NCBI GenBank assembly: GCA_017475035.1
Contig: JAFVGK010000150.1
Span: 1-37,185, forward strand
Length of the DNA stretch: 37,185 bases
Source of the DNA: Blautia sp.
Lineage (GTDB): Bacteria > Bacillota > Clostridia > Lachnospirales > Lachnospiraceae
Direction: 5' to 3'
Positions 12,911-30,800 of the stretch are shown here, piece after piece (position 1 is the first letter of the stretch; each line of letters begins with the position of its first letter). The translations under genes were made by a program, and so were the position numbers. Under the pieces are notes generated by a model. It was not told the origin of the DNA. It saw only the letters and a list, made by a program, of their open reading frames with translations, and searched no databases.

Positions 12911-12940
12911 GGGGGAGTGGAATGCTCCCCCTTATTTTTT
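12911..12940 (+). terminator. Intrinsic terminator after the endolysin
   Basis: GGGGGAG (12911-12917) and CTCCCCC (12925-12931) form a perfect 7-bp stem with a 7-nt loop, then TTATTTTTT. It ends the lysis unit eight bases after the endolysin stop. Confidence 0.9.
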
Positions 12941-13123
12941 GTCCAAATCTGCCAGACCAGCATCCCATCGTCCGCTCAAAATTCTCCGAATTATGCCAGC
13001 CAGAATCCCCATTCTACCTATTATTATAACTTGCTTTATCCGCCAACAGACAGTAATATCCACGTACGCCTGGAAGAGGCGGGAGTACCGCTGGTAAATG
13101 GCGGGGAAAGGAGGAAACACGCA

Positions 13124-14740
13124 TTGCAGGATTTTTCTTTGCCATCATTTGACGAACTGATTTCACAGGCTGGGTCAGCTTCCGGATCAGCTCCGTCTTT
13201 TGACAAAAGCCGCTCGATGAATGTGATCAAACCGGTCGTAACAGCGGAAAAACTGAAAGTAGCGGCTTACTGCCGGGTCAGTACAGAATACGAAGAGCAG
13301 CAGTCATCCATAAAGATTCAGAGACAGCACTTTTCCACACTCGCCGCGAAACATCCCGACTGGGAGTTCGTTGGCATCTACGCCGATATCGTGTCCGGTA
13401 CGAAAATGGAGAAGCGGCCGGAGTTACTAAGACTTCTTTCCGACATTGATTCAGGCAGCGTGAACCTGGTACTGACCAAATCCGTGTCCCGCTTCGCCAG
13501 GAACATCACTGACCTGCTGGAAATGGTCAGGAGTCTTACGGCGAACGGGGCGGACATTTACTTCGAACGTGAGCGGATCGACACCCGGACAATGGATTCA
13601 GAGTTCCTGCTGACAATCCTCGGATCACTGGCGGAGGACGAGAGCCACAGTATTGCCTCAAACTGCCGCTGGGGGCTGCAGAGGAGATTTCAGGATGGCA
13701 GTTATAGGGCGGCAAGTGCGCCATACGGATATGATCTGGTCGATGGTAATTACAGTGTGAACGAGAGGGAAGCAGCAGTTGTCCGGGAGATTTTCGATCT
13801 TGCTGAGTCAGGGTGTGGAAATCAGGCGATCGCGAAGCTCCTGAACGAAAGAGGGATTCCTACAAAACGCGCCGGCCAGGTCTGGAAAGGGAAAGAGGTC
13901 GCTGGCATCTGGTCTGGTTATCACATCCACAAAATCCTGAAAAACGAGGCCTACATCGGCGACCAGGTTTTGCAGAAAACCTACTCCGACAGCACTTTCC
14001 AGAGGCGGATAAATAAAGGTGAACTACCGAAATTCTACCTGGAAAACCATCATCCGGCGATTATTGAGAAGAAGCAGTTTGAAGCGGTCAGGGTAATCAT
14101 GGATAAGCGGAAAACGGGGCCACTCGGAGCCAGAATCCCATCCGTCTTCTCCGGGAAAATGGTCTGCGGATGCTGCGGAGCGAAGATGCAGAAAATGACC
14201 AACCGGGTGGGTAATGTGTCGATGGTTTGTGGCAGGAGGAGAAAAAAGGCAGCCCATTGTGGGCAGACGAATCTCAAGGAGGATTGGATCAAAGGAGCTT
14301 TTGAGAGTGTGGTGAACACACTGGCTGCCGATGATTCGGATCTACGGGAGTATAGAGAAAAAATTGAGGGCGAGTTCCGGGGGAGGAATGAAGAGAGGCT
14401 GAGGGTAATTGAAGCAAGATTACCGGAGATTGAGAAGGAACTGACAGCCCTCAGCCATTCCAGAAACCGAAATGTAGTCAGCGGGGCGGACTTCCTGAAC
14501 CGGCAGAATGAACTGAAAAAAGAGGAACTGGATCTACTGACGGAACTGGAGCGATTGACCGACAACAGAATAAATCAGACAGAGGAACTGCTTAAGCTGG
14601 TACACAGCCGGGGCGGTTCCTTTGTTTTTGACGAAAGTACATTTAATCTGGTGGAGAGGGTCACAGCGAGAGGGGAAGAGTTGATCTTCCGGTTCCGGTG
14701 TGGGTATGAGATGAGCGTGGAGATTGAGAGAAAGAAGTAA
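13124..14740 (+). CDS. Large serine recombinase 1
   Basis: The frame is open from 12917, but TTG 13124 is preferred because AAAGGAGG lies about 9 nt upstream and the earlier part overlaps the terminator. The 538-residue product has a resolvase catalytic domain with nucleophile Ser53 in AAYCRVSTEYEEQQ and conserved SVSRFARN. A Recombinase domain follows (SAPYGYDLVDG, AYIGDQVLQKTY), then a zinc-ribbon (CGCCGAKMQ ... CGRRRKKAAHCG) and a coiled coil. Such enzymes integrate or excise phages and transposons between att sites. It forms a pair with the next gene, 9 nt downstream. Confidence 0.9.
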   Translation: MQDFSLPSFDELISQAGSASGSAPSFDKSRSMNVIKPVVTAEKLKVAAYCRVSTEYEEQQSSIKIQRQHFSTLAAKHPDWEFVGIYADIVSGTKMEKRPELLRLLSDIDSGSVNLVLTKSVSRFARNITDLLEMVRSLTANGADIYFERERIDTRTMDSEFLLTILGSLAEDESHSIASNCRWGLQRRFQDGSYRAASAPYGYDLVDGNYSVNEREAAVVREIFDLAESGCGNQAIAKLLNERGIPTKRAGQVWKGKEVAGIWSGYHIHKILKNEAYIGDQVLQKTYSDSTFQRRINKGELPKFYLENHHPAIIEKKQFEAVRVIMDKRKTGPLGARIPSVFSGKMVCGCCGAKMQKMTNRVGNVSMVCGRRRKKAAHCGQTNLKEDWIKGAFESVVNTLAADDSDLREYREKIEGEFRGRNEERLRVIEARLPEIEKELTALSHSRNRNVVSGADFLNRQNELKKEELDLLTELERLTDNRINQTEELLKLVHSRGGSFVFDESTFNLVERVTARGEELIFRFRCGYEMSVEIERKK

Positions 14741-14749
14741 GGAGGAGAA

Positions 14750-16387
14750 ATGAGCCAACCAAAAGTACGTGTAATCAAAGGTACTGCGGTGCAGCCGGCA
14801 AGGCGGACACAGCCACCGGAGCCGCAACGGGAGAAAAAGAGGGTCTGCGCCTACTGTAGAGTTTCTACGGACCATGAGGATCAGGAAACTTCATTCGAGG
14901 CTCAGCAGAAGCATTTCAACAGCCTGATCAGTGATAATCCTTCATGGGAGCTGGTCGGTATTTATGCGGATGAGGAGTCCGGGACGAGGGCACAGAAGCG
15001 TGAGAACTTCATGCGCATGATCGCGGATTGTGAGGCAGGGAAGGTGGACATGGTGCTGTCGAAATCGATCAGCCGATTTGCCCGCAACACCCTCGACTGC
15101 CTGAAGTACATACGGAAGCTGAAAGCTCTGGGAATTCCGATCTTCTTCTCGAAAGAGGGGATCAACACAATGGACGCTGGCGGAGAAGTCCTGGTCACGA
15201 TTCTGGCGAGCATAGCTCAGCAGGAAAGCGCCAGCATTTCCCAGAACGTCCAGATCGGCGTGCGCTACCATTTCCAGGAAGGGAAGATTTGCGCCGGTGT
15301 CCACAGGCTTCTCGGTTACAACCGGACAAAAGAGGGATCGCTGGAGATCGTTCCGGAGGAGGCGGAGATCGTTCGGAGGATCTACCGGGATTTCCTCGAC
15401 GGCTACAGCATCCGCCACATTGTGGAAATGCTGCAGGATGAGGGCGTGGACGGCAGCAAAGTGACTGCCGCAGGAGTTGAGCTGCCAAGAGTGTGGTGTT
15501 TCAGCGGGGTTGAGTACATTTTGCAGAACGAAAAGTACGCCGGAGATTTAATTCTCCAGAAGTACTACACAGTGGATTTCCTGACGGAGAAAACTGCTCT
15601 GAACACCGGCCAGCTTCCGCAGTACTTTGTGGAGAATAGCCATCCGGCTGTGGTTCCGAAAGAAGTGTTTTTACAGGTACAGGCGGAGATGGCAAGGCGC
15701 AGACATCACTGGGTGGATTTCCGTTACAGCCACAAGAACGCCCTTGGCGGCCGTACTTTCTGCGCGGAGTGCGGGACACCCTTCCGGAGGGGCGGGAACC
15801 ATTGGCGCTGCGAGACAAAGATGAACCGGAAGAGACATCCGGGGGTTGAGTGTGGAAATGGGAGCATAAGTGAAAAGGATCTGAAAAAAGCAGTGGTCAG
15901 TGCGTTCGAAGGATTACCGGAGAGAAGTGAGGAATTGGCCAGGCTTGAGGAGAGATTACACTGGGGAGGCCTGGCCAGGGCGGATGAAGTCCTGGCGGCG
16001 ATCGAGACCGAGATGGGAAGCCTGGAGCAGAAGATGGCAGGAGCAGATGAAGAAGTGAGAACAGAATGCCAGGAGAAGCTGCGAGAGCTTCAGGAGCAGT
16101 GGTCAGCGGCTTCCGAGCAGAGAGCCGTCTATGCCGACAAAGCTTTACAGATCCAGAGCCTGCAGGATCGGATTACAGTCATGGCTGGTGAAGCAGAGAA
16201 GGGAGTTAAACACAGGGACGGAAGCTGCGAGAACGCAGAGGACTTTTATCGACTTACAAGACCGGAGTACCACGGAGGGGCTTATACAGACGACGATGTG
16301 ATTCGGTTCGTGGACAGGATTGTGGTTGGGGCGGATAAGGTGAGTGTGATCTTCAAGGCTGGGATCAGTGTGGATATTGAGAGATGA
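14750..16387 (+). CDS. Large serine recombinase 2
   Basis: ATG 14750 follows AAGGAGGAGAA. The 545-residue protein has nucleophile Ser39 in CAYCRVSTDHEDQETS, SISRFARN, a Recombinase domain (VHRLLGYNRTKEGSLEIVPE; EKYAGDLILQKYYTVDF), a zinc ribbon (CAECGTPFRRGGNHWRCE) and a long C-terminal coiled coil (about 390-480). It is clearly related to, but diverged from, its neighbour. Both are complete, so they may act together on att sites, as in some multi-recombinase elements, or serve different elements. A terminator follows immediately. Confidence 0.9.
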   Translation: MSQPKVRVIKGTAVQPARRTQPPEPQREKKRVCAYCRVSTDHEDQETSFEAQQKHFNSLISDNPSWELVGIYADEESGTRAQKRENFMRMIADCEAGKVDMVLSKSISRFARNTLDCLKYIRKLKALGIPIFFSKEGINTMDAGGEVLVTILASIAQQESASISQNVQIGVRYHFQEGKICAGVHRLLGYNRTKEGSLEIVPEEAEIVRRIYRDFLDGYSIRHIVEMLQDEGVDGSKVTAAGVELPRVWCFSGVEYILQNEKYAGDLILQKYYTVDFLTEKTALNTGQLPQYFVENSHPAVVPKEVFLQVQAEMARRRHHWVDFRYSHKNALGGRTFCAECGTPFRRGGNHWRCETKMNRKRHPGVECGNGSISEKDLKKAVVSAFEGLPERSEELARLEERLHWGGLARADEVLAAIETEMGSLEQKMAGADEEVRTECQEKLRELQEQWSAASEQRAVYADKALQIQSLQDRITVMAGEAEKGVKHRDGSCENAEDFYRLTRPEYHGGAYTDDDVIRFVDRIVVGADKVSVIFKAGISVDIER

Positions 16388-16413
16388 GGGGAGCTGCGGC
16401 TCCCCATTTTTTT
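16388..16413 (+). terminator. Intrinsic terminator of the recombinase operon
   Basis: GGGGAGC (16388-16394) and GCTCCCC (16399-16405) form a perfect 7-bp stem with a TGCG loop, followed by A and seven T. It starts right after the recombinase stop codon. Confidence 0.9.
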
Positions 16414-16433
16414 GTTATTCCTAAACAAATCAA

Positions 16434-16462
16434 TTGAAATAGCAGGTTGTTTGAGCTATGAT
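16434..16462 (+). promoter_or_regulatory. Sigma-70-type promoter for the Rpn-like gene
   Basis: TTGAAA (16434-16439) and TATGAT (16457-16462) are separated by exactly 17 bp. Transcription would begin near 16469, just before a terminator-like hairpin, so the leader could be attenuated. Confidence 0.6.
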
Positions 16463-16477
16463 TAAGAAAAGATCAGA

Positions 16478-16513
16478 CCCGCGTGAGAGATAATATCTTA
16501 CAGGCGGGGTTTT
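16478..16513 (+). terminator. Leader hairpin with T tract (possible attenuator)
   Basis: CCCGC plus GTGAGA pair with TCTTAC plus GCGGG through an 11-bp stem with a 2-nt bulge (16478-16508), followed by GTTTTG. It lies only about 10 nt after the predicted transcription start and upstream of the nuclease gene, a placement that suits an attenuator better than a gene terminator. Confidence 0.55.
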
Positions 16514-16585
16514 GTCATACCTGCGGGTAGATAACTGATCCGGTTTATGGTAAGATAAGGACAACCAAAAGGGGTGAGGATCAGG

Positions 16586-17497
16586 ATGCAAGAACAAGAA
16601 AGACCGCAGTCAGATAAAACACCTGTGAATACCAAATACCACTCTGGCTTTGTCAGTGGATTGGAATTATTGTTGTGGCAATACCGGGAGCAGGTTGATA
16701 TTGAGACTGAGAAATGGTTGAGTACGGAAGGAATCCGGATGGATGTTCTTATCCTGAAAAAGGATCCGTCTGTAGAGCTTGATTTTGATGTAGGCAGGAT
16801 ATTCAGAGGGCACAACATCCTGGAATACAAGAGGCCAGATGATAAACTGAATATTGATGTGTTTGCCAAGGTCATGGCATATGCTAATCTGTATAAGTCG
16901 CAGGGGATTCCTGTGAACTCTATTTCGTACAGCGATATCAGCGCGACAATTTACCGTCATGCCTATCCTCGGGACGCATTTCATCAGTTAAAAGAACATG
17001 GCGCTGTGATTGAGGAGAAGTATCCGGGCGTCTATTATGTCACTGGAATGAGCCCGTTTCCAGTCCAGATTCTTGTGGGGAGACGGCTTGATCCAAAAGA
17101 ATATGCGATGTTTCGTGTACTCAGGTCCGGGGCAAGTGACGAGGATATCAGAAGTTTCAAAGATATGGCCATCCAGAACAAGGACGCCGCTTATCAAAAA
17201 AGTGTAGACATTATTTTCCAGGTCAGTATTTCCGCAAACAAGGAAAGCTATGCCAGGTTGTATAAGGAGGATCAGGAAATGTGCGAAGCGATGAGAGAAT
17301 TGATGAAAGATGATTTTATACAAGCAGAGAAGCGAGGCGAAAAGAAGGGCGAAAAGAAGGGCGAGAAGAAAGGTGAAAGTAAGCTTGCCACACTGATGGA
17401 TAAACTGTTTTCTCTTGGCCGAGTAGAAGATGCGAAAAAGGCAGCCAGGGACGAGGTGTTTCGGGCTGGATTGTTCAAGGAATTTCAGATCCTTTGA
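16586..17497 (+). CDS. Rpn/PD-(D/E)XK nuclease-family (transposase-like) protein
   Basis: ATG 16586 is chosen over GTG 16574 because GAGGATCAGG and AAAGGGG precede it. The 303-residue protein has PD-(D/E)XK signatures: Asp in GIRMDVLIL (about 47-55) and ExK in HNILEYKRPDD (about 83-93), followed by a helical region. The C-terminal third is charged and carries a tandem GEKK repeat (about 251-262). Rpn proteins are recombination-promoting nucleases related to YhgA-like putative transposases, and many Lachnospiraceae carry several copies. It is a monocistronic unit with its own promoter and ends at structured element A. Confidence 0.75.
   Translation: MQEQERPQSDKTPVNTKYHSGFVSGLELLLWQYREQVDIETEKWLSTEGIRMDVLILKKDPSVELDFDVGRIFRGHNILEYKRPDDKLNIDVFAKVMAYANLYKSQGIPVNSISYSDISATIYRHAYPRDAFHQLKEHGAVIEEKYPGVYYVTGMSPFPVQILVGRRLDPKEYAMFRVLRSGASDEDIRSFKDMAIQNKDAAYQKSVDIIFQVSISANKESYARLYKEDQEMCEAMRELMKDDFIQAEKRGEKKGEKKGEKKGESKLATLMDKLFSLGRVEDAKKAARDEVFRAGLFKEFQIL
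17336..17371 (+). repeat. 12-bp tandem repeat, three copies
   Basis: GGCGAAAAGAAG is repeated twice exactly, with a third copy changed at two positions. It encodes the GEKK repeat in the C-terminus of the Rpn-like protein. Copy-number slippage here would change linker length without shifting the frame. Confidence 0.8.
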
Positions 17498-17514
17498 TGA
17501 GAACAAATAGAACA

Positions 17515-17595
17515 CCCGTGTGAGCTTTTTCACTTGAGTACTTGGGAGCATTCCTCCCCGGTTCTCTGGTAAAATCGCACACACGGGGATTTTTT
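17515..17595 (+). ncRNA. Structured element A (terminator-like RNA)
   Basis: An outer stem CCCGTGTG (17515-17522) with CACACGGG (17580-17587) is followed by GA and six T (17590-17595). Inside are GAG/CTC pairing and a GGGAG-CATTC-CTCCC hairpin. The motif GAGTACTTGGG and the 3' segment CTCTGGTAAAATCG match elements B and C. The element follows the Rpn-like gene directly. It certainly could terminate transcription; its 60-nt structured interior is more than a terminator needs. Confidence 0.65.
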
Positions 17596-17604
17596 ATTTT
17601 CTGC

Positions 17605-17633
17605 TTGATATTTCTGACTCCTTCGTTTATAGT
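17605..17633 (+). promoter_or_regulatory. Promoter of the 103-residue orphan gene
   Basis: TTGATA (17605-17610) and TATAGT (17628-17633) lie 17 bp apart, starting 10 nt after the T tract of element A. The gene starts 30 nt beyond the -10 box. Confidence 0.55.
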
Positions 17634-17662
17634 CCATAGCTACAAACAAGGAGGGAAAAGCT

Positions 17663-17974
17663 GTGAAAAACCTTACTGCTGTGGACTACGTAAGAACATC
17701 TCTTGACCATGACTTCAAATCACAAGCACCTATCATTCAAACCTGGCTGGAGAATCGAATGAAGGATCTGGATGATGAATGGATTCCGGTTTCTGATCAG
17801 GAACAGGCAGATTTCCAAGGTATTCTGGAACTCCTTGTCTACCCGTTTCTCGTCTGCTACAAAGCTCTGATTGACTCTGACGTTTCAGAAGCCCGTGCTG
17901 GTAAATACTGCCAGCAGATCTGGAAGAAGATGCCTGTGAGTATCATGGAAACCACACTGGCCAGCCTCGTGTGA
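17663..17974 (+). CDS. Orphan hypothetical protein (103 aa) between elements A and B
   Basis: GTG 17663 follows CAAGGAGGGAAAAGCT. The 103-residue product begins MKNLTAVDYVRTSLDHDFKS and contains WLENRMKDLDDEW, FQGILELLVYPFLVCYKALI and a C-terminal KYCQQIWKKMPVS. It looks mainly alpha-helical, with no signal peptide and no clear membrane segment. I do not recognise it. It has its own promoter and is bracketed by structured elements A (30 nt before the promoter -10 region) and B (17 nt after the stop). Whether the two RNAs are more than terminators for this cassette is open. Confidence 0.65.
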   Translation: MKNLTAVDYVRTSLDHDFKSQAPIIQTWLENRMKDLDDEWIPVSDQEQADFQGILELLVYPFLVCYKALIDSDVSEARAGKYCQQIWKKMPVSIMETTLASLV

Positions 17975-17990
17975 GCCAGGATAATATTTG

Positions 17991-18067
17991 CCCTGTGTCG
18001 CGATTTCAGGAGAGTACTTGGGGAATTATCCAACCGGCTCCGCTGAAAACGCGACACAGGGTTTTTT
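17991..18067 (+). ncRNA. Structured element B (terminator-like RNA)
   Basis: A perfect 12-bp stem joins CCCTGTGTCGCG (17991-18002) to CGCGACACAGGG (18050-18061), then six T (18062-18067). Inside are TTCAG/CTGAA, GGAG/CTCC and TTGG/CCAA helices. It shares GAGTACTTGGGG and CTCCGCTGAAAACG with its relatives and is the most regular of the three copies. It follows the orphan gene by 17 nt. Confidence 0.7.
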
Positions 18068-18090
18068 CTATTTCCTCACTATCTCAAATT

Positions 18091-18133
18091 ATCAGACAAA
18101 TAGCTACAGCATCACATATTCATCAGACAAATA
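18091..18133. repeat. Two copies of a 12-bp direct repeat
   Basis: ATCAGACAAATA occurs at 18091-18102 and again at 18122-18133. This lies in the 205-base non-coding stretch between element B and the adhesin pseudogene, where no gene or promoter is convincing. It may be a footprint of rearrangement. Confidence 0.4.
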
Positions 18134-18272
18134 CACTTTCTCCACTTCCCCATGGAATCAGGGCACTTCTCTCGCGAATTAGAACTTATTTTTTGCCGTT
18201 TTTTGCCCTTTTTCCGCAAAAACCGCCCGATTTTCTCACGCAATATGAGTTCATTTTGAATTTGGTAAACAG

Positions 18273-21200
18273 TGGGTGGATTTCCACTGGGAAGTGGACG
18301 GTCGAAGCTTTGAGTTCAGCATCCCGGGCGGCGGCTATATTGCGCTGTCCGACCTGATGGGTATGCTTGGTATCGTGAATCAGGATGCGGAGGATAAGGC
18401 TGAGCAAATCTCCGATTTTATGGCTGACGTTGAGAACGTGGAGTTCAGCGCACCAGAGTTTATGAGTGTGAGCCGGGTTGAAGAGGACACCACCGTAGGA
18501 GAAATAAAGGATCGCCTTGGTTTGGTGTGTGAAAACTCCGCACTGCTCAAAGAGGAAGCCTTGGAGGCTATAAACGCATCAGAAATCAAGGCCGGAGACT
18601 GGGCATTGATCAGCGTGGTACCGTTCGAAACGGAAGAAAACCTGATCGTTACCTTGAAGGATGACGAGGAATTCTCCATCCGGGTTACGGATGCACAGCT
18701 CAGAAAGACCGTTATCAGTGCAGATGGCAATGCCTATGAAATCACCGTAACGTATTTTGGAACGGCTCAGATTCCAGACGGTGCGGAACTCAAAGTGAGA
18801 GAAATCCTTGAGGATGACGAGGATTACACAGAATACTACAAGAAAACCATCGCGAAGACAGAAGAGCTCAATATTGACGATTTTTCTGAGAATACGTCTG
18901 ATGAGGGTGCTAAAGATCCCGCAGAAGTCCCTGAGGGTGTTAAAGATGAAGAGACGTATGTCGAGGATTCCGAAGAGAAGGAATCCACGTGGACATCAAG
19001 AAATACCTTTGCAGCAGCTGCGGTGAAGCCTGAAATCGACAAGATTTTCGATTACGTACGTTTTTTCGATATTCGGATCTGGGCCGAAGGGCGGGAGGTC
19101 GAGCCGCAGTCCGATGTTTCTGTTGCAATCTCCCTGGCTGATGTGCCAGAGGATATGTCTTCTGACCTGCAGGTCGTGCACTTTGGCAAGGGCGGCACGG
19201 AGTTGCTGAATGCTGAGGAGCACTGGAAGATCGAAGAGGATGCAGCTGTTACCGAGCTTTCATTCACAACCGATGGATTTTCGGTATACACAGTCGCGTC
19301 CACGGCCAACAACCTTGGCGAAAATATATTTCTCAGGGATTATGTGCTGGTGAACCACGGGGTTGCGGTTTCACCGGAGCAGAATACTACATCAGGTTAT
19401 ACCCAGAACCGGCGCGGTATTCCTGTTACTGTGGCAAACGGTAGAATTTCTACCGACGAGGATACACTTCCGGTATGGCGATTGGGACGAGACTGGGATA
19501 ATAGGCAAAATAAGTGGCGCTATTATGTTTCCACTATATATGAGGACAAGACACAGTACCTGCATATTGCAAACAACAACAGTGGAGCAACAAATATAAG
19601 CACCGAAAAACAGTATCTCCGGATCGAAACCCGAAACAATGGAACCGAATACAGGTTTTATCGCGAACATAGCGGACAATCGCTGGATCTGTTTGATAAC
19701 AATTACCAGCACGGCTTCGGCACCTATGATGGTAATAGGGAATATGAATACTTTACGCTCTACGAACTTGGTGAGGAGATTCGCAACAAAGTGACGGTGC
19801 ATTTTGTCGACAGAGACGGGAACCCACTGACCGGGGTAACCTACAGTGGGGATTATGGCGACTATGTCGTCAATAATGAGGATGGCACCTTTGAGATTCC
19901 CTACAACTGGAAGAGTCCCAATGAAGCTGTCGTCAACCTGAAGACAGACTTTGCCAAGTCCGGCTATACCTATTCCAGCAGTCACCTGGCAGGAATCCGG
20001 ACGGGGGAAGCCGAGCTGAAATGGGGTGGACTCACCATTGATGAGAAACTGCACAGCACGGGTCATGCCCTGGAGTATTACACTGATCGAGGCAGGAATA
20101 GTCCTCCGGATATCAACACTCAGTATCCTTATACTAACGACGTGGGAAATGTAGGATATTTCCCTCCACGCGTATTCAATTTCAACGATCAACTGAAGGT
20201 ATACAAATCTGATAACAGTGAAGTGGTTTATACTCAGGCGGGCGTGGACAAGGATGTTTATGTCATACTGGATCCGGTCACTTCAGGCAACGGTTCAGGG
20301 AACAACAGCGGCTCCGGTTCGGGCAGCAGCGGCTCCGGCAGCGGTGGAGGCTCGCACGATGCGGAGGATCCCAACTTCCATAAACAGCTGACGCCAAATC
20401 AGGACGGTACCTATACTCTGTCGCTTAGTGTGACTGGTCATGCAAAGAATACAACTGAGCAGCCCAAGGCTAATATTCTGTTGGTTGTGGATACTTCTTC
20501 CAGTATGAATGGCAGTACCACAGACTTAAACGGTAATTCCAGCACTCGTCTTAATGCAACTAAGGGTGAGCTCAAAACATTGGGGGGATTGCTGTTGGAC
20601 AAGAACACGACCGAGCATCCGGACAGCGTAGAGCTTGCCATGATTTCTTTTGATGGCGATGTCGTGAATGAATTAGACTGGGTGAAAGCCAAGAATGAGT
20701 TTAGCAGCTGTGTAGATTCCAGCAGTCATCTGAAAATGCATCGAGGAACCGACTGGGAGGATGCTCTCCAGAAGGCTTTGGAAATTGCTGATGACAAAAA
20801 GGAAAAGGAACCGGATCAGCCGGTGTTTATCGTGTTCTTCACAGATGGCGAGCCTTCCCAATATTCGAACTTTCATGGAACAGGTGATTTTAATGGCTCT
20901 GGCGGGAACTACCAGCATTATTACAGCTATTACCTTTCCAGGGAAACGACCAAGGATGAGATGCGTGCCATTGTTCTGTCGGGGCACCGACTCTACGGTG
21001 TGTATGCTTTCAATGATTATGATAACGCGAACGATAACAGACATCCAACCCATCCATATAACGAGGAGAAGGGACACGACCTGCTTCACCATGCGATACA
21101 ATACGGATATAACACCAACGCGGATCTCTCGGGTTCCTATTTCCATTATGCCAGAAACGGGTCTGAACTTAATAATGCCTTTTCTGCTATACTCAAGGCA

Positions 21201-23734
21201 ATCAATGAGACCGTCGGTTTTGACGAAGTGGTGATGACTGACAGCATCACCTCGCTCACCAGCGTAGGTATCAGCATGGACGGAGAAGAAGCGGTTGGGT
21301 TCAAGTATACCCGCTCCGGCGGACAATATGGTGCAAATGGAGAGACATGGACAACTGCACCGAAGGCAACCTATACTGAGGCGCATGATGGCGAACTTGC
21401 CAAGGTCACTTGGGATCTGAGTTCCTGCGGTATGCTGGAGGACGGCGTGACATATACGGTGAGCTTCACAGTGTGGCCGAGTCAGGATGCCTACGACTAC
21501 GTCACGAAGCTCAACAACAGGTTTATCGAATCCATTGACGATATACCTGAGCCTGATAGATCATGCTTCACATATAATCAGAAAACCGGGAGATATGAGG
21601 TCATGACCAATCCCGAGAGTGGGCCGACGCAGGATGGCAGCGTCACTAACAGGATTGACTACCATAAAGAGAAGACTGAGACAGTTAATGAACTTCCCCC
21701 GGGTGTGACGCCGGGAGTAAATATTCGGTGACTGAAGAGCCGGGGGATGACGACTGGCCGCAAGTCACAACGACGACCTGGTATAAAGAGAACGGAGAAG
21801 GAACCTGGATCAAACATGTGGTCTCCGAAGTGGTAACTGCCTTCGGACCGCCGGACGATAACATGGGCCTCGACGGCAGTGCCTTCAAGATTCGGAAAGA
21901 GTAGAGGGCCAGCCGTGAGAAGGAAATGATTGAGTTCCTCTACGACGTAACAACAGGCCTGCCCGTCGAGTCGCATATGTATCTTGATTTTAACGTCAGG
22001 AATGTAGATGACTCCGACCGTCCCAAAGATTTTTCACATGTCCGAATGGGCTACGATGAAACGATTCATGACTACAGATGGGCGGATGCAACGCACTCTG
22101 TTGAAGTGCATGGGATTTTCCATCAGGTGGGCACCATCTGGGAGAAGAATCTGGATATTTCCTATGGCTTGATGCTTTCTCCCGAGAACGCGAGTCTACG
22201 AGGACTTAAAGTGGATGACAAGCGTTATATCCCGATTTACGCGAGCAATGAGGACAGGCAAAATGGCATTATCAGTTATTATGTTTTGGAAAAGGGCCAC
22301 GACTACCAGATCGATGAACCCAGTCTGGATTACCGCTTCGAATTCGGGACCGACATCTACCACCCCATGCTGGTCAACGGTGAGCCTTCAAACGTGAAGA
22401 TCTCGTACCATCGGGCGAACGGAAAAGAGTACGGTATGCTGAAGGAATCGGAACAAACGTCCATATTGATAGGATGGAACGTGCTTCGCGGCAACCTGAA
22501 GATGAAAAAGACCGTGATCGGTCCGGACGGTGAACCGGAAACGAACAGTACCGCCAGCTTTGAATTCAAGGTCACACTAGCCAACGAAGGGGATCCTGGT
22601 CCGTTCTACAACGGCGTTGATGAGCATGGCGACCCAATCCCAGACGAGCAGAATATACCCTGGTACGGTGTGCAGCACAACGGTACAGGAGAAATCCTGT
22701 ATTATCACAGGGTGCTTGAGGATGGCAGCTACGAGTACGCAAATGAACTGACGGCTTGTGTGGACGGTAACTACAATAACGGCCTGCTGGAGGGCTATTT
22801 CGGAAACCAGATGATACCGGACGGGGAAAACCCCAGAAATATAGTTACGGCAGATATCCGGATGATCGCGACCGACGTGTGGACTATCGCCAACATCCCC
22901 AGCGGAACCATATATACGATCGAGGAGATCCCAACGAAAGGATATGATTTTGTCGACGCGGTGGAAACGGGCAGTGTTCCCGAAAACAGGGTCGACAGTC
23001 CGGATGCTCCCGTCATAGAGGGCGATGTCGAAATCAACACCACAACGGAGGTCGTATTTAAAAACCAGCGATGGCTCGAATTCGAGCTCCTCAAAGTAGA
23101 CGTGGATCAATTGGACGAGGAGAATCCCGAACCGCTGACCGGCGCGGCGTTTAAATTGCAGAAATATACGGATGTTAATTTCAGAACTCTGGATACAAAG
23201 TGGGGGAGCCGCGGCGAAAAGACGGCTGTGGATACAGCCGAGAATCCCGGCATCTTTCACTTTGAAGGTCTTCTGGAGGGTTATTACATGCTGGTGGAGA
23301 CAGCCTGGCCGATGGGATACGTGAAACTGGATAGTGATCCATTGTTCAAGGTAACCTTTACGAATGGTGAATTCCAGTTGCAGCTGCTCAAAGACGATGG
23401 CAGCGGTAATTTCGTTTCCGCCGATGGAAATCGCAATAACAATGTGAAGATCATGACAGTTCAGAGACCTGTTGGAAATGATTATGAAGGATCCGGCGGA
23501 ACTCAGTCAGACCCTCAGACCAACTCTGAAACTGACCCGGAGACCGATCCCGAAACTGATACGGAGAATGTGTTTCTGTTTATTTACGGCAACACCCCCG
23601 GTGCAGCTCTACCGAACGCCGGTGGCCTCGGAACGAATCTTTTCCACCTCATCGGCTGCATCCTGACGATGCTTGCAGGCGTGGGGATGGTTTTGAAGAG
23701 TAGATGGATGGAAGCGGCGCGAGAAAATCGATAA
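18273..23734 (+). pseudogene. Broken LPXTG-type vWA/Cna_B adhesin, paralog of the giant adhesin
   Basis: The reading frame opens at about 18273-18276 with no ATG or ribosome binding site, precisely where similarity to the giant protein begins (VDFHWEVDGRSFEFSIPGGG against VDFHYEINGKVYEFSIPGGG). The signal sequence and about 870 N-terminal residues of that paralog are absent. Three segments remain: frame to 21731; after a frameshift near 21718-21724, a second frame (SVTEEPGDDDWPQVTTTTW) to TAG 21902; then the same frame to 23734. Recognisable parts are a Ser/Gly linker, a von Willebrand A domain with MIDAS VVDTSSSM and FFTDGEP, Cna_B/SpaA-like regions (GAAFKLQKYTDVNFRTLDTK) and an anchor ALPNAGG followed by a hydrophobic segment. 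Unlikely to make functional protein. Confidence 0.8.
21902..21904 (+). other. In-frame TAG in the adhesin pseudogene
   Basis: The segments ending AFKIRKE and resuming at REKEMIEFLYDV are in one frame, separated by this TAG. In related adhesins I recall a Trp directly after RKE, so TAG probably arose from TGG. This is from memory and not checked. Confidence 0.55.
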
Positions 23735-23744
23735 ATATTCTGAG

Positions 23745-23785
23745 ACAGGCTCTGTGAATGATAGGAAAATCATCACAGAGCCTGT
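23745..23785 (+). terminator. Inverted repeat after the adhesin pseudogene
   Basis: ACAGGCTCTGTGA (23745-23757) and TCACAGAGCCTGT (23773-23785) pair perfectly over 13 bp around a 15-nt loop. The tail TGTTGATG is only mildly T-rich, so termination may be weak or bidirectional. It begins 11 bases after the stop codon. Confidence 0.6.
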
Positions 23786-23892
23786 TGTTGATGACAGCTG
23801 CGACAGTACGATTCCTGTCTTCTCTATTGATGTAATGAAGGGAAGTGTTGCGTATGCAGATGGCATGCTTCTTTATTACTTATTGAACGATA

Positions 23893-23968
23893 GCCTGTGT
23901 TCTGTTTTCGCGAGAGAACCGGGGTTTTTTCCCTCCTTCTCCGCTTAAATCGGGACACGGACTTTTTT
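23893..23968 (+). ncRNA. Structured element C (diverged relative of A and B)
   Basis: The outer arms 23893-23904 and 23951-23962 pair over 12 positions with three G-U pairs and one mismatch, followed by six T (23963-23968). Inside, GAGAA/TTCTC and a GGGG-loop-CCCT hairpin correspond to the inner helices of B. Shared segments are TTTCGCGAGAGAACC-GGGG and CTCCGCTTAAATCG. The pairing survives despite sequence changes, which supports a real RNA structure. No gene ends directly before it except the pseudogene, 158 nt upstream. Confidence 0.55.
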
Positions 23969-24426
23969 ATTTTTCTGGAAACCTATCAATTCACTTCCAT
24001 ATCCTCTTGTTGAAAAAAACTCTGTTCAAAGATCAGAATGGGGTTTATTCAAAACAGATAGTCAAAGCCAATCCGCTTTAGCTTCGTATAATAACAAATG
24101 AATAATAACAAGGTTTTCAGAACTGCATTCAAAATAATATGCATTTCTTCTGCTGCCCATGAATGAAGCTGAGCAGAAGCCGCTGTTTAAAGAAGATGGC
24201 AGAAGAGAAGGTCGTGACGAAGGAGTGTTGTTTCATTACGTTCGGAAACGACAGAGGTTTACGTAAGAAAAATATAAAACAGGCTTACAGAAAGATAAGA
24301 AATATCAGTTGAAAAAAGCAAATTACTGTCTGAACCTGCAATTTCTATTATCATAACATAAATCGGTAAATCAACGTAAAAATACGAAAAAAATATATTG
24401 AGTCTGTTGGTTGGTTTATATTTTAC
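23969..24426. other. AT-rich non-coding stretch
   Basis: No convincing gene is present between element C and the adhesin promoter. The only coding-like trace is a 35-residue frame at 24159-24266 that resembles an Rpn-family C-terminus. The rest is AT-rich sequence with no strong ribosome binding site. Confidence 0.5.
24159..24266 (+). pseudogene. Possible remnant of an Rpn-family C-terminus
   Basis: The 35-residue frame contains KPLFKEDGRREGRDEG, similar in style to the Glu/Gly/Arg repeats that end Rpn and related nuclease-transposase proteins. It has no ribosome binding site and no preceding catalytic domain. It could be a decayed relic of a copy like the one at 16586, or chance. Confidence 0.25.
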
Positions 24427-24465
24427 GTGACAATTGGTTGTAAATATGATATAATAAAACCAATT
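24427..24465 (+). promoter_or_regulatory. Promoter with overlapping inverted repeat, upstream of the giant adhesin
   Basis: GTGACA (24427-24432) and a perfect TATAAT (24450-24455) are spaced by 17 bp. AATTGGTT (24432-24439) and AACCAATT (24458-24465) are inverse copies covering the spacer edge and the start region, a placement that would suit an operator. The resulting leader would be about 350 nt. Confidence 0.55.
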
Positions 24466-24624
24466 ATGATTACTGTTTTTTCTTGCATAAGGCTCAGAAA
24501 TTTGGGTTGAAACAGTATTTAGAATAATTGCTTGATATTGTAAAAAATACATATTATTTATATATCTGATTCATGATATATGAGCAATAAAGTAAATAAA
24601 TGATTCTGGTATTAATAATTCCTC

Positions 24625-24812
24625 CGGATTGCTTGACGTTGAGTGCCGCCACAATCCGAAGAGATACGGGCATATCATAGGAATCTGCCGTTCTGTATGT
24701 TCGTATCGGGATGTAACGGAAGGGAGTCGCCACTGCAGGGCTGTTTTTAGTGGAAACAGGCTTTTTCACACCGGAATCCAGACGTAATTGTGACGACGAA
24801 AGGGGAATGGAA
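24625..24812 (+). other. Structured 5' leader of the giant adhesin
   Basis: Downstream of the promoter the sequence becomes GC-richer. It can form CGGATTG/CAATCCG (24625-24631 with 24652-24658) and a GATACG/CGTATC hairpin soon after. No known riboswitch class is recognised. The stretch from 24466 to 24624 is AT-rich and without a gene. Confidence 0.3.
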
Positions 24813-27800
24813 ATGGTTGGACGGAAGAAGGATAATGCGATTCGTGAGATAATGGACAAGGTATACCGGAAAAAGCCATGGAACAGGGGAGTTACTGCGA
24901 TTGCCGCCGTAATTGTATTTATCACGACATACCTGTTGATCCTTCCTGCGATTACGATGACAAAAGACATTGTCTGCGGGAAAGAAGAGCATATTCATAA
25001 TGACCAGTGCTATGAGACGACATATCAGCGTGTACTCAACTGCCCATATACGCAGATGGGAGATGGCGTAATCATTCTGCATAAACACGATGAGAATTGC
25101 TATGATACCGAAGGAAAGCTGATCTGCCCGCTGCAGGAAACAGAAGAGCATGTACATACTGCAGCATGCTATGGCGTTGAGGAGCAGGACTTGTTTGGCT
25201 CCACAGCAGTCGAAGACGGTTTCGGCGCGGGGATCTCTTTTGCTCCGGCAGATGAGGGTTTTGGAGCTTCAGAAGGTACGGATCTGTTTTCGTCATCCGC
25301 TGCCGTGCCTCCATTATGTGGGATGGCGGAACTTGTTCCTCATACTCACACAGAGGAATGCTATGATTTTTATGGAAATCTGATCTGCGGGAAGCCGGAA
25401 GTGATTGTGCATCAGCATGGTGAAGAATGCTTTTCCTTTGTTCCGGACAAGCGGGTTCTGATCTGTGGGAAAGAGGAGCACGTGCATGACGATTCCTGCT
25501 ATGCCTCAAAGAATGAGGAGCTGCCTGAAGAAGTCGGGGCAGTCGAGGATCTGTTTACCGGAGAGACAGCGGAAGAAAATGCCGTGGTCGTGATCGACGA
25601 AATTGGAGCAGCGGATGATTTTGCTGCTGCCCCGGAAGATATGTTTGGTTCAGAGACCGAAGAGGAAATTGCAGGCATTATTCCGGAAGATAGCGATAAC
25701 AATGAAGGCAGTCATTCTCTTGCTTTCTTTATCGGAGCAGGTGGAGAAGAAGCCTTTGAGCAGGCCGCGGCAGGTGAGGATCTTTTTTCCTCAGGCGAAT
25801 CTGAGAATCAGGAGCCTGGCTTTGACAGCGGTTCCGACGGAGATGCTGCCCTTCCTGCCGAAATAGAGGGAGAAACCGTGACAGAGGCTCCCGACAAAAC
25901 AGACGGCGGAAATGTATTCGAGGAGAGCTTCGGAGAAAGCACCACTGCTGAGGAAACAACGGAATTTACGGTTGTTGAGACCACGACGGAAATAACCACG
26001 GCTGCTTTTGTTCTGGTTTTCGATGAAGACAGGGAAGCGTTGGCTGAAAAAGAAAGCGAAAGCGAAACAATACCCGGAGAGAACGCGGAGCAAGGTGAAG
26101 GCGACGATGCAGGCGAGATAATCGCAGAAGCCGGTGAGGAGGAAACGACTGTAGAGTCGATCACGGAAATCACCTCGGAAGTGACAACCGAAAATACGAT
26201 CGGCGGGCAGACAACAGAATTCATTACAGAAGAAACATCCGCAGAGCAGTCAGCGGAAGAAACGACGGGAGAGTCTTTGACAGAGCCTGTTGCGGAGATC
26301 ACGACAGAGGAAGTATTAGTCGAACAATCTACGGAAGTAACGACAGAAGCGACATTGGTTGAACAGTCTACAGAAATCACGACAGAGTGGATGACCGGAG
26401 AGCAAACGACAGAGGTTGTGACGGAAGTGACTTCTTCTGATTCGATGACAGAACAGACGACGGAGGGTAGGACAGAATGGACGACCTTCGAAGCATTGAC
26501 AGAGCAGACAACGGAAGGAAAGACAGAATGGACGACCTTCGAGCCGCTGACAGAGTATACGACGGAGGGTAGGACAGAATGGACGACCTTTGAGCCTGTG
26601 ACAGAGCTAACGACAGAAAGAGCGACAGAATGGACCACATTTGAGCCATCCACCGAGATGACGACGGAATGGACAACCGTAGAAAACAGCACAGAGCAGA
26701 CGACGGAATGGATCGAGACTACAGAGTATGTGGAGCAGACGACTGCAGTCCTGGAATACATCGGGAGAGATTATAAGGTTCGCGTGACCTATCTTCCGGC
26801 TTCCGGGATCCCTGCCGGAGCAAGAGTAGAAGCAGAAGAGATCGCATATGATTCAGATGAATACGCAGAATATCTTGCGCAGGCAAAGTCTGCCCTTGGC
26901 TTAGATGAAAGCAAAGAATTGCCGAAGGAATATGCTCGATTTTTCGATATTCAGATCATGGCTGCCGGTGAAGATGGTGAATGGAAAGAAATCGAACCGA
27001 CCGGACCGGTACGCGTAGAAATTATCTATGACCAGCCGGTGAATGTTGAAGGAGCCGACACAGCGGCAGCAAATATCGTACACTTTGACCAGCAGGAAGA
27101 AGAGACAAAGGTTGAAGTTCTCGCGACGATCGATGCCACACCAAATGGGGAAAATAGCGAAGAGGCGAATCATGTTGCGGACACGGGAGTGAATGAAGCA
27201 GAGAACAGCCAAGGTGATGGAACGACCGGCGGAGAGGAAGACGAAGAAAGCGAGGATATAGATAGTCTTTTTTCGCCTGAAGAAGATGTGAATGGTAATG
27301 GGCCAACCCAAGAGGTAACCGACGAGACGGATTCGGAAGATGCTTCAGCTGTAGAGGGAACAGAAGATAAAACCAAAGGAATAGTATCATTTGAAACAGA
27401 TAGTTTTTCTGTGTATGGCGTTATTTATACGGTGGATTTCCACTACGAAATAAATGGGAAAGTGTATGAATTCAGCATCCCTGGAGGGGGGTGTGCGACA
27501 ATTTCGCAAATTGTTGAACTGCTTGGAATTGCAAATAAACAGGGAAATACGTGGAGATCTGCTGAAAATGAGGGAAATAGACAGATTAACGATGACGCTA
27601 TGGAAAATGGCGATGATGGCATCGATAATTTGGTGGAGGAAGTGATAGATGTAAGTAACGATATACAAAATGAGGATGGTGAAAATGCTGAAGGATTAAT
27701 TGGAGGTGGAACTGACGATACTTCTGTTGCGACGTTAACGGATCAGAGTATGGGGGATGGCAATGGGGTTTTTGGTGACCAGGAAAACACAAATGCATCT

Positions 27801-30800
27801 GGAAGAGCTGATACAACAGAAGAAACTAATTCTCCGGAAAATTCAACAGATTCCACAAATACTAATGATCTGAAATTTCCACCAGTACCGTTAGTTATTT
27901 CTCCCGAATCGGGAGAAAATACTGATGCTTCTGGCTTACATGCAAACACTGTTTATGCTGGTATTTCATCAACAACTTTCTCTCTGGATAATGTAATCAT
28001 TACAGATGAAACCAGAGATTTTGTATCTGATATTGCCAATGTGGAATTTAGTAATTCCAGCCTTCTTTGGGTTGGAAAAGTAAATGACAACACTACTATT
28101 GGACAGCTGAAAGAAGCTAATGGCTTAGATGTTCAGTATTCTGCTGTTCTTACAGAAGATGATATTAATGCTTTAAATAGTTCTTCTGTAGAAGAAGGTG
28201 ACTGGGCATTGATCAGTATCGCTCCATTCGATACACAAGAAACATTAACCGTTACCATGAAGAGCGGAGATGTCTTCACAATTGATGTAACGGATGCTCT
28301 TGTCGATAATGATGCTGTAGAAGATAATAAACCCTATATCCTTTACGGGGTTTATACAAGAACCGGACAATATTATGCTCTACGGTACAATGGTGATTGT
28401 TATGCTGTCCCGGGTAATAACCTGGATTCACTGGGGGATGACTTTTACTGGTACCATAACTCCAGTGACAATAGATGGCATTCCGGTTCTTTTGATAATC
28501 ATGAATATTACATCAATCTATGGTATGAAAACCTCCAAACTGCTATTGTCAGAGATTGGGGCTCTGAAATTCACATGGTTGATGACTGGGATCATGATGG
28601 AGGTTATTACTTCAATACATACTCCTGGGATGGCAATACTTATGTCCTTTGGCTTTATTACGATTATAACTCTGACCCCAGCCAGTGGCGCTTTGTTTCC
28701 GGTCAGGGTGGTAACACAGGTAATGGAAGCCCGACTTATATATATCAGAAAGGCGAGAAGCATAAACTCACAATCGAAGTGGAAGATAATTCCAGCAATA
28801 CCGGGTTTGTATATATCGGTGACTGGGTAACAGAAGGCCAGGTAGATATCAGCAGTAACGGCACCAATGCCGACGAGATTCTTGCTGGCGTGAACCTTCA
28901 GAATAACTATTGGTTTGATCATTGGGAATTGGATGGACAGATAATCGATGAATCCGAAAATGTCAGATCTTTTGAATATAATGGAGCCTCTTACGGATGG
29001 ATTGCAGCTGGTGCATTAACCATCGGTAACGAGGATAATCATGTATTGAAAGCAGTGTTCGTGCCGGAGACGAGATTTGATGTGGAAGTTTCTCCATCTG
29101 AGGGTGGCTCTACTAACGTATCCAGTTCTGCTCGGACGAAGGACGGATATAACAAGGAAGAAATCAACGCATCAGCAAAAAACGGATACTGGTTCGGCCA
29201 TTGGGAAATCGATGGAGAGGAAGTGCCTGAGAGCAACTATAATATTGCAGAAGATGGTCTGAGCAGTACACTACCGGTCCATTCTTTAGAGATCGGTGAT
29301 GGAGAATGCTTGACTGCGGTATTTATTCCTCAGATCACTTATGATGTGGTGGCGGCTCCAGAGACACCTGGTGCCAGCATTACTGGTTGTACGGTACAGG
29401 TGGGAGAAAGAGCGGCAGATTCGGTACCAAATAATAACATGTCTCGTTGGGGCTATAATCTTGAGAATATTACGGCAAATGCAGGTCCTGGTTACGTGTT
29501 TAAAGGATGGATGCTTGACGATGAGCCTATTTTGGGTGATGCAGAGATTGAAAGCGCATTAGACGGATCTACGAGTAAAATAAAAAAAGGAACGCTCCAG
29601 GTCAGCCCTGATGGTCTTTCTCACGTGGTAAAGGCTTTGTTCGTTCAAGAGTACAATTTTACTGTAACTACATACCCGAATGGTGGTGGCAAGGTACAGG
29701 ATGGAGACAAGATTGACGGCGCAGCTCCGACAATTTTTGCGTCTATGACGAAAGATGGTCACAACAAGTATGACATTACTGCAATTCCCAATAATGGATA
29801 TTCTTTCCTACATTGGACGATGAACGGTCAACCACTACAGGAAGGAGAAGGAGAGGAGAAACACTTTTTATATACAAATGGTATTATTCCGGAAGGTGAA
29901 CTGGACCTTACTTCTTCGGATAACATCTGTGCAGTATTTGTGAAGAATGAATATGAGATTATAGTTAAAAATGACACACATGGCAAAACCTCGATCGGTA
30001 ATGGCACGAATGATAAAACTGAGAAGACTTGTAATACGGTTAATAATGGTAATGAAGCCAAAGAAGCGGTCTCAAAGATTAATGCTTCACCTGATTCAAA
30101 TTATAAGTTTGCGTACTGGAAGGTTGGATACTGGGAATGGCAGAAGGATTCGCAGAACAATTTAAGATATGATGAAAATGGTTATCCTATGACGATTGAG
30201 TATCCAAATGATTCGGTTATCGACTGGGGAGAAGGTTATTCGGTAACAAGCAGTACAATCCAGCCCAAGGTAAACGCTGATACTGTGCTGACAGCGATGT
30301 TTGTGAGTTCAAACCAGCGTGTTTTCACAGTTACGGTTGATGACCCAAGCCACGGAACGGTTTATGGCCCGGATGTGAGCGGAAATAACGTCTCTAATGA
30401 TGCTGTGGGTGTGACAGCTTACGTAGCTAAGACTGCTCTTAACAATAACCATCAGTCAAATGATGGTCGTCCACAGGTACGAACTGTAGCCAGCGGATAC
30501 GAGTTTTTGGGCTGGAATCTATACAAGTCAGACGGAACGACATTGGTTGCATCGTATAATGGCTATTTTGACAATAGTCTTAGTGGAAGAAGCCAGCCCG
30601 ACTTGCTGAAAAAGTGGCAGCTCGATAATAAGAGCATCTGGTTTGATCAAGATGACATGGTTCTCATGGCAATGTTCGGGCCAAAAGAAGTGCCGGATGC
30701 TTTTGAGGATGATGCTATGGATGCACTCTCAGAGTGGGCTGCCGATATCGCTGGAACTAAATATCTGAGCGACAAGGAGGCTGAGGTATTTGATTACGAC

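What the first reader, a model, noticed from the sequence alone, without database searches (positions are those of the whole stretch)
17515..23968. Three homologous structured elements (A, B, C) that look like an undescribed RNA family
Elements at 17515-17595, 17991-18067 and 23893-23968 are all on the + strand. They share one plan: a long outer stem of the CCYGTGT...ACACRGG type, a second helix, an inner hairpin and a T6 tract. A and B share GAGTACTTGGG. B and C share TTTC..GAGAG and CTCCGCT.AAA.CG. The outer stems differ in sequence but remain paired (perfect 12 bp in B, G-U pairs in C, 8 bp in A), which points to selection for structure. The interior is far larger than a terminator needs. 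I do not recognise a known riboswitch or ncRNA class. Function is unknown: a repeated terminator, a 3' processing signal, a mobile hairpin or a small RNA are all possible.
Basis: partly seen in the sequence, partly recalled or inferred. Interest (0 to 1): 0.75.

Follow-up and report, generated by a model that had tools for sequence, protein, structure and literature searches.

The report
Repeated long terminator-like hairpins
Three look-alike 75-80 base hairpins are real and belong to a small family scattered through this bacterium's genome, but they look more like repeated transcription stop signals than a new kind of functional RNA.

Summary
A, B and C lie where stated, fold far better than shuffles (z -5.6, -7.5, -4.4) and share sequence. 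A model of these three finds further copies in the same genome; a 12-row model scores 12 places there at 53-88 bits, 11 of them in its training set. Pairing is kept through changes on both sides at 16 of 26 pairs. Rfam has no match.

Conservation sits in the paired arms (0.67 pairwise identity), not in the unpaired interior (0.41). Both strands match, so the element is a near-palindrome. Each window copy ends in T6; A and B start 17-18 nt after a stop codon. Hairpins as stable follow 7, 5 and 16 of 170 other genes: A-C are at the strong end but not alone. The genome holds other dispersed palindrome families.

Best reading: a lineage-restricted family of long intrinsic terminators, probably often bidirectional. 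Loose end: 5 of 12 independent own-genome copies follow Rpn-type nuclease genes (one sub-threshold, one a remnant); this does not generalise (53 against 170 genes, p 0.74). Termination is untested.

The parts
17515..17595 (+). Element A: 8-bp outer stem, interrupted inner stems, T6 tail; starts 18 nt after the stop of the upstream gene
17991..18067 (+). Element B: 12-bp perfect outer stem, TTTCAG/CTGAAA middle stem, T6 tail; starts 17 nt after the stop of the 103-aa ORF
23893..23968 (+). Element C: outer stem with G-U pairs and a bulge, T6 tail; 159 nt after the stop of the SpaA-domain gene
16574..17497 (+). Gene upstream of A: 307 aa, weakly Rpn-like (TIGR01784 16.7 bits, below the 52.1 cut-off; no Pfam match at 0.001)
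17663..17974 (+). 103-aa ORF between A and B; no Pfam match at 0.001, no NCBIfam match at 1
21926..23734 (+). SpaA-domain surface protein gene upstream of C
23744..23786 (.). A further hairpin between the SpaA gene and C (GGCTCTGTGA/TCACAGAGCC), stem resembling the family's outer stem, no T tract

Best explanation
A, B and C are members of a low-copy, lineage-restricted family of dispersed near-palindromic hairpins (about 75-90 nt) that sit mostly at the 3' ends of genes and act as long, often bidirectional, intrinsic transcription terminators. The transcript folds into the long stem and RNA polymerase is released at the following U tract; where an A tract precedes the stem the same palindrome can serve the other strand. 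Shown: homology, pairing with compensatory changes, T-rich tail, 3' position of most copies, near-palindromy, lack of a conserved unpaired interior. Inferred: that they terminate transcription, and that the copies spread by duplication and recombination of segments that end at the hairpin.
For: R1, built from A, B and C alone, scores copies it was not trained on at 65.1, 64.8, 59.0, 56.0, 43.6, 43.6 and 40.3 bits in the own genome, against at most 38.2 bits in 60 relatives. Paired columns 0.67 identity, unpaired interior 0.41. 16 of 26 pairs have a change on both sides; 0 of 500 shuffles reach this. T-rich tail: 14 of 15 copies by script with 6-7 T in 8; the script misread C, whose T6 is seen. 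By my gene of 15 copies examined (13 own, G032, G350) lie 3' of a gene, 8 of them within about 40 nt of its stop (A, B, C131, C49, C55, C87, C33, G350); C2 does not. A-rich stretches precede the stem in several (C65, C79a, C79b, C87, C2, G032, G350). Two sets of paralogous segments break off at or within about 13 nt of the hairpin (C131 against C49/C55; C65/C77/C79a/C79b).
Against: A simple terminator scan (28 sites in 14000-33999) did not list A, B or C, whose stems are long and interrupted. Orientation of each copy was mostly picked by model score, and the model includes the T tail, so the tail count leans towards the reading. Lying 3' of some gene is expected for most intergenic sites, so only the close ones weigh. 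C lies 159 nt after its gene, C65 and C79a about 320-350 nt. A plain terminator does not need 12 related copies. By stability A, B and C rank near the top of 170 control 3' ends, so they are stronger than a terminator needs. No transcript data are available.
Confidence: 0.75

Rival explanations
1. A mobile palindromic DNA repeat (REP-like or MITE-like) moved by a transposase; termination is a side effect.
For: Matches on both strands; the sampled own genome (1.25 Mb) holds other dispersed long-palindrome families of 10, 7, 5 and 4 members; homology breaks at the hairpin edge in two paralog sets.
Against: Only one Y1 transposase fragment (50 profile positions, at the start of a contig) was found in the own draft genome; no GTAG or GTGG is seen at the 5' foot (15 sequences printed, by eye); copies are divergent and few; no empty site could be shown (the one 99% identical flank, in G457, breaks off at the end of the fetched locus).
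Confidence: 0.25
2. The hairpin is a 3' end belonging to Rpn-type PD-(D/E)XK nuclease genes, for example an end on which the nuclease acts.
For: Own genome: PDDEXK_2 genes at C87 and C33, C-terminal Rpn-type fragments at C49 and C55, a remnant at C131, and a weakly Rpn-like gene before A: 5 of 12 independent copies (C49 and C55 counted once). A post hoc binomial with an assumed 4800 genes gives 8e-11 to 3e-8, or 3e-6 to 9e-5 without C131 and C33.
Against: 53 PDDEXK_2 genes (usable ones of 89 loci, from a search of 120 family genomes) have 3' hairpins no longer and no more stable than those of 170 neighbouring genes (19.5 against 20.2 pairs, p 0.74; energy p 0.86). R2 finds no strong copy in 90 such loci (best 23.3 bits) or in 40 loci that include 29 homologues of the window gene (best 16.9 bits). 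Other Rpn-type genes of the own genome (C183, C21, C14, C192, C24, C82) show no copy.
Confidence: 0.08
3. A cis-regulatory or trans-acting structured RNA.
Against: No conserved unpaired motif, variable apical part, no Rfam match, and no common downstream gene seen in the gene calls beyond the duplicated segments.
Confidence: 0.06
4. Integron-like attC sites flanking gene cassettes (A - 103-aa ORF - B).
For: Folded, sequence-variable hairpin after each of two ORFs on one strand.
Against: No GTTRRRY core in any of 15 copies; RYYYAAC in B only, inside the hairpin; no match over the cut-off to the integron-integrase model in the own genome.
Confidence: 0.01

Closest known systems
Rho-independent (intrinsic) terminators
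   Same: G+C-rich stem followed by a T tract, just after stop codons for A and B
   Different: Stem long and interrupted; about 12 related copies share sequence; not caught by a simple consensus scan
Palindromic candidate RNAs of human microbiomes (PMC8040213, passages and section 8 read)
   Same: Palindromes found on both strands, the named examples 80-132 bp; 230 of 250 such candidates there were predicted terminators
   Different: The named examples are mostly or entirely from Bacteroidetes; their sequences were not compared with this family
Stem-loop sequence families of bacterial genomes (PMC2267715, abstract, outline and passages seen)
   Same: Repeated stem-loops, two thirds of the families structured and intergenic; terminator use is proposed there for one kind
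   Different: 40 other genomes as far as the passages show; sequences were not compared
REP sequences with TnpA-REP/RAYT (PMC6006769, passages seen)
   Same: Dispersed intergenic palindromes
   Different: 21-65 nt with a GTAG/GTGG guide at the 5' foot; neither is seen here

Membership tests
Intrinsic terminator | Stable stem-loop directly followed by a T-rich tract | tested here: met
   the orientation caveat is in the report
Intrinsic terminator | Simple consensus: stem of at least 5 pairs, loop of 3-8, then a T-rich stretch | tested here: not met
   A, B and C are not among the 28 sites; the scan does not allow long interrupted stems
Intrinsic terminator | Position 3' of a gene | tested here: met
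   14 of 15 copies by my gene calls, 8 within about 40 nt; C2 not
Intrinsic terminator | Ends transcription | not testable with these tools
   needs Term-seq or a reporter
Rfam family | Match to any of 4227 models | tested here: not met
   0 matches at E up to 1 in the window and in 10 loci with other copies
Structured ncRNA with functional interior | Conserved unpaired nucleotides | tested here: not met
   0.41 unpaired interior against 0.67 paired, 12 rows
Structured ncRNA with functional interior | Covarying pairs | tested here: met
   16 of 26 pairs, 0 of 500 shuffles; a DNA palindrome would give the same
REP/TnpA-REP | GTAG/GTGG guide at the 5' foot | tested here: not met
   by eye on the 15 sequences printed
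REP/TnpA-REP | Full TnpA-REP (Y1) gene in the genome | tested here: inconclusive
   one fragment at the start of a contig; draft genome
Integron attC | GTTRRRY and RYYYAAC cores | tested here: not met
   15 copies
Integron attC | Integron integrase | tested here: not met
   no match over the cut-off; sub-cut-off matches ring in all 14 control genomes too, none of which is over the cut-off, so there was no positive control

The most novel reading that the evidence does not exclude
The palindrome is a recognition or boundary site for Rpn-type PD-(D/E)XK nucleases in this lineage: gene-plus-hairpin units move, and segments are exchanged with breakpoints at the hairpin. That would give this nuclease family a defined DNA end.
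Probability: 0.06. Interest if true: 0.65.

Novelty: new member of a known kind. Interest (0 to 1): 0.2.

Why it matters
It adds a lineage-restricted repeat family to a known kind, and shows that covariation in a palindromic hairpin family is not by itself a sign of a new RNA class. If the nuclease link were real it would point to a DNA end for the Rpn family, whose targets I recall as poorly defined.

Tried and rejected
Rpn genes as general owners of long 3' hairpins: rejected. The first run (52 against 171 genes) had one strand typed wrongly, so one nuclease gene stood among the controls; the corrected run uses 53 of 89 loci (1 dropped for an incomplete ORF, 35 for under 150 nt of sequence or under 110 nt of free space downstream) against 170 neighbouring genes under the same rule, with the same outcome. 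The 89 loci were chosen from the best of the matches listed, not at random; locus L135 was not included. In that run A and B were measured from their stop codons, C from position 23881 on, not from the stop.

Conservation of A with homologues of its upstream gene: rejected (the 60% identical gene of G357 has none). Family hits outside the genome: in 397 family genomes (own included) one strong place, G350 at 51.8 bits; the next, 35.0 in G357, is a different long palindrome. Only 11 candidates per genome were scored there, so weak copies are lost. A pattern of both arms gave 2 places in genome contigs: one inside an 891-aa frame of a Sulfurospirillum MAG and probably chance, the other in a rumen Clostridia MAG about 130 nt after a gene that I judged Rpn-like by eye only. 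It gave none in viral contigs. Phages and plasmids: no match to B. Empty-site search for one copy (C131), 60 genus genomes: uninformative. GAGTACTTGGG as a family tag: rejected, the third copy is coding. A first palindrome scan was too strict and crashed when saving; replaced. Clustering at E 1e-4 splits this family into groups of 3, 3 and single copies, so family sizes there are lower bounds. In the literature search, 8 of 10 listed papers were about CRISPR or Cas12a; I do not claim that this family is absent from print.

Full report
WHAT IS THERE. The three elements are at the stated coordinates with the stated pairing. They fold well below shuffled sequence (z -5.6, -7.5, -4.4) and align over their whole length. 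Each also matches the model on the opposite strand, so they are near-palindromes. Rfam gives nothing at E up to 1 for the window or for ten loci with other copies.

HOW MANY. A model of A, B and C (R1) was run on the own draft genome (5.08 Mb, 200 contigs). Copies it was not trained on score 65.1 (C77), 64.8 (C131), 59.0 (C65), 56.0 (C79b), 43.6 (C49 and C55) and 40.3 bits (C79a), then 35.6 (C191, a 53-nt hairpin), 32.0 (C87) and 30.3 (C2). In 60 relatives the best are 38.2 bits, a different and longer palindrome in G003 (sequence), and 30.5 bits in G032. A 12-row model (R2; 11 own-genome copies and G032, with C55 left out as nearly identical to C49) scores 12 own places at 53.6-88.5 bits; 11 of these 12 are its training rows, so those scores are by construction. 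Only 150 of 1626 candidates were scored there. A search of 1.13 Mb of own-genome stretches found one more full-length match at 39.7 bits and several weaker or shorter ones, so the count is a lower bound. In 397 family genomes only G350 has a strong copy (51.8 bits); many of the weaker matches listed there span only 36-57 nt.

STRUCTURE. On the 12-row alignment 83.8% of cells pair, 16 of 26 pairs have a change on both sides, and no shuffle of 500 reaches this. Sliding the partner by 1-3 columns drops pairing to 35-58%. Paired columns have a mean identity of 0.67, the unpaired interior 0.41; the outer stem and the TTTCAG/CTGAAA stem are the conserved parts (0.77 and 0.85), the inner part is not (0.45). 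This is what a hairpin needs. Covariation cannot tell an RNA hairpin from a DNA palindrome.

SURROUNDINGS. A starts 18 nt after the stop of a 307-aa gene, B 17 nt after the stop of a 103-aa ORF, C 159 nt after the stop of a SpaA-domain gene. By my own simple gene calls, 14 of 15 copies examined lie 3' of a gene, 8 of them within about 40 nt; C2 does not. Most intergenic sites lie 3' of some gene, so only the close ones carry weight. Several copies have an A-rich stretch before and a T-rich stretch after the stem, as a two-way terminator would. A simple consensus scan for terminators does not list A, B or C.

IS A LONG 3' HAIRPIN UNUSUAL HERE? It is at the strong end but not alone. Of 170 control genes in regions from family genomes, 16, 23 and 35 have a 3' hairpin with at least as many pairs as A, B and C, and 7, 5 and 16 have one at least as stable. 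In 1.25 Mb of the own genome 105 long palindromic hairpins lie outside ORFs of 100 aa or more, and several fall into dispersed families, the largest with 10 members.

THE NUCLEASE LINK. Copies C87 and C33 follow PDDEXK_2 genes. C49 and C55 follow the same C-terminal fragment at contig ends, related to an Rpn-type protein on C21, and C131 holds a remnant of that 3' end. The gene before A resembles the Rpn model only below its cut-off (16.7 against 52.1 bits). In G350 the upstream gene looks to me like an AAA-ATPase with a PD-(D/E)XK-type end; that name is recalled, not tested. Within this genome the link is stronger than chance (post hoc, gene number assumed). But 53 nuclease genes in the family have no longer or more stable hairpins than 170 neighbours (p 0.74 and 0.86), 90 such loci hold no strong copy, loci with 29 homologues of the window gene have none, and other Rpn-type genes of the same genome lack it. 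I take it as local history: a few gene-terminator segments were duplicated. The bolder reading, that the palindrome is an end for these nucleases in this lineage, is not excluded and is kept as the novel case.

HOW THE COPIES SPREAD. C131 and C49/C55 share about 160 bp that end at the outer end of the hairpin. C65, C77, C79a and C79b share the hairpin and what follows it: a promoter-like stretch (TTGACA...TATAAT, by eye) and, in all but C65, the start of a gene that I recognise as TetR-type (recalled, not tested); the homology begins at most about 13 nt before the stem. So segments were exchanged with edges at the hairpin. Whether the palindrome itself moves could not be decided: no empty site was found, the only close flank breaks off at the end of its locus, and the genome shows one Y1-transposase fragment only.

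VERDICT. Published surveys describe the same kind of thing: 230 of 250 palindromic candidate RNAs of human microbiomes were predicted terminators (PMC8040213, section 8 read), and 92 repeated stem-loop families were found in 40 bacterial genomes (PMC2267715, abstract and passages seen). On checking, the finding that A, B and C rank high in stability made me lower the confidence in the plain-terminator reading slightly, from 0.80 to 0.75.

Noticed in passing
window 23744-23786: Another hairpin between the SpaA gene and C, stem GGCTCTGTGA/TCACAGAGCC, like the family's outer stem but without a T tract.
   Followed up: no
window 12917-16387: Two neighbouring large serine recombinase genes (Resolvase, Recombinase and zinc-ribbon domains), perhaps the end of a phage or integrative element; the elements studied lie just beyond.
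   Followed up: no
window 18276-35486: Related surface-protein genes in a row (VWA, DUF7604, SpaA, DUF7601 domains in the first two; the third ORF, 3578 aa, was not scanned). The 1151-aa ORF starts with a stretch that recurs in similar form inside the 3578-aa one, so the first may be truncated.
   Followed up: no
L201, L203, L230, L246, L259, L260, L261, L264, L265, L272: A second dispersed palindrome family, roughly ACAAAAGGTCATGCAAAAATGAGC/GCTCATTTTTGCATGACCTTTTGT, 10 members in 1.25 Mb of the own genome.
   Followed up: partly
L200 (two), L226, L260: A third palindrome family, roughly GAGTCAGGGGGACAGGTTCCTTGACTC, 4 members.
   Followed up: no
L022 1501-1553, L028 341-393, L030 1501-1553: Three similar 53-nt hairpins with an outer stem like this family's and similar gene surroundings.
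   Followed up: no
L049 4690-5250: C131 joins a transporter-gene fragment (MATE-type, recalled, not tested) to the 3' end of an Rpn-type gene; in C55 the matching block lies about 900 nt on the other side of the hairpin.
   Followed up: partly
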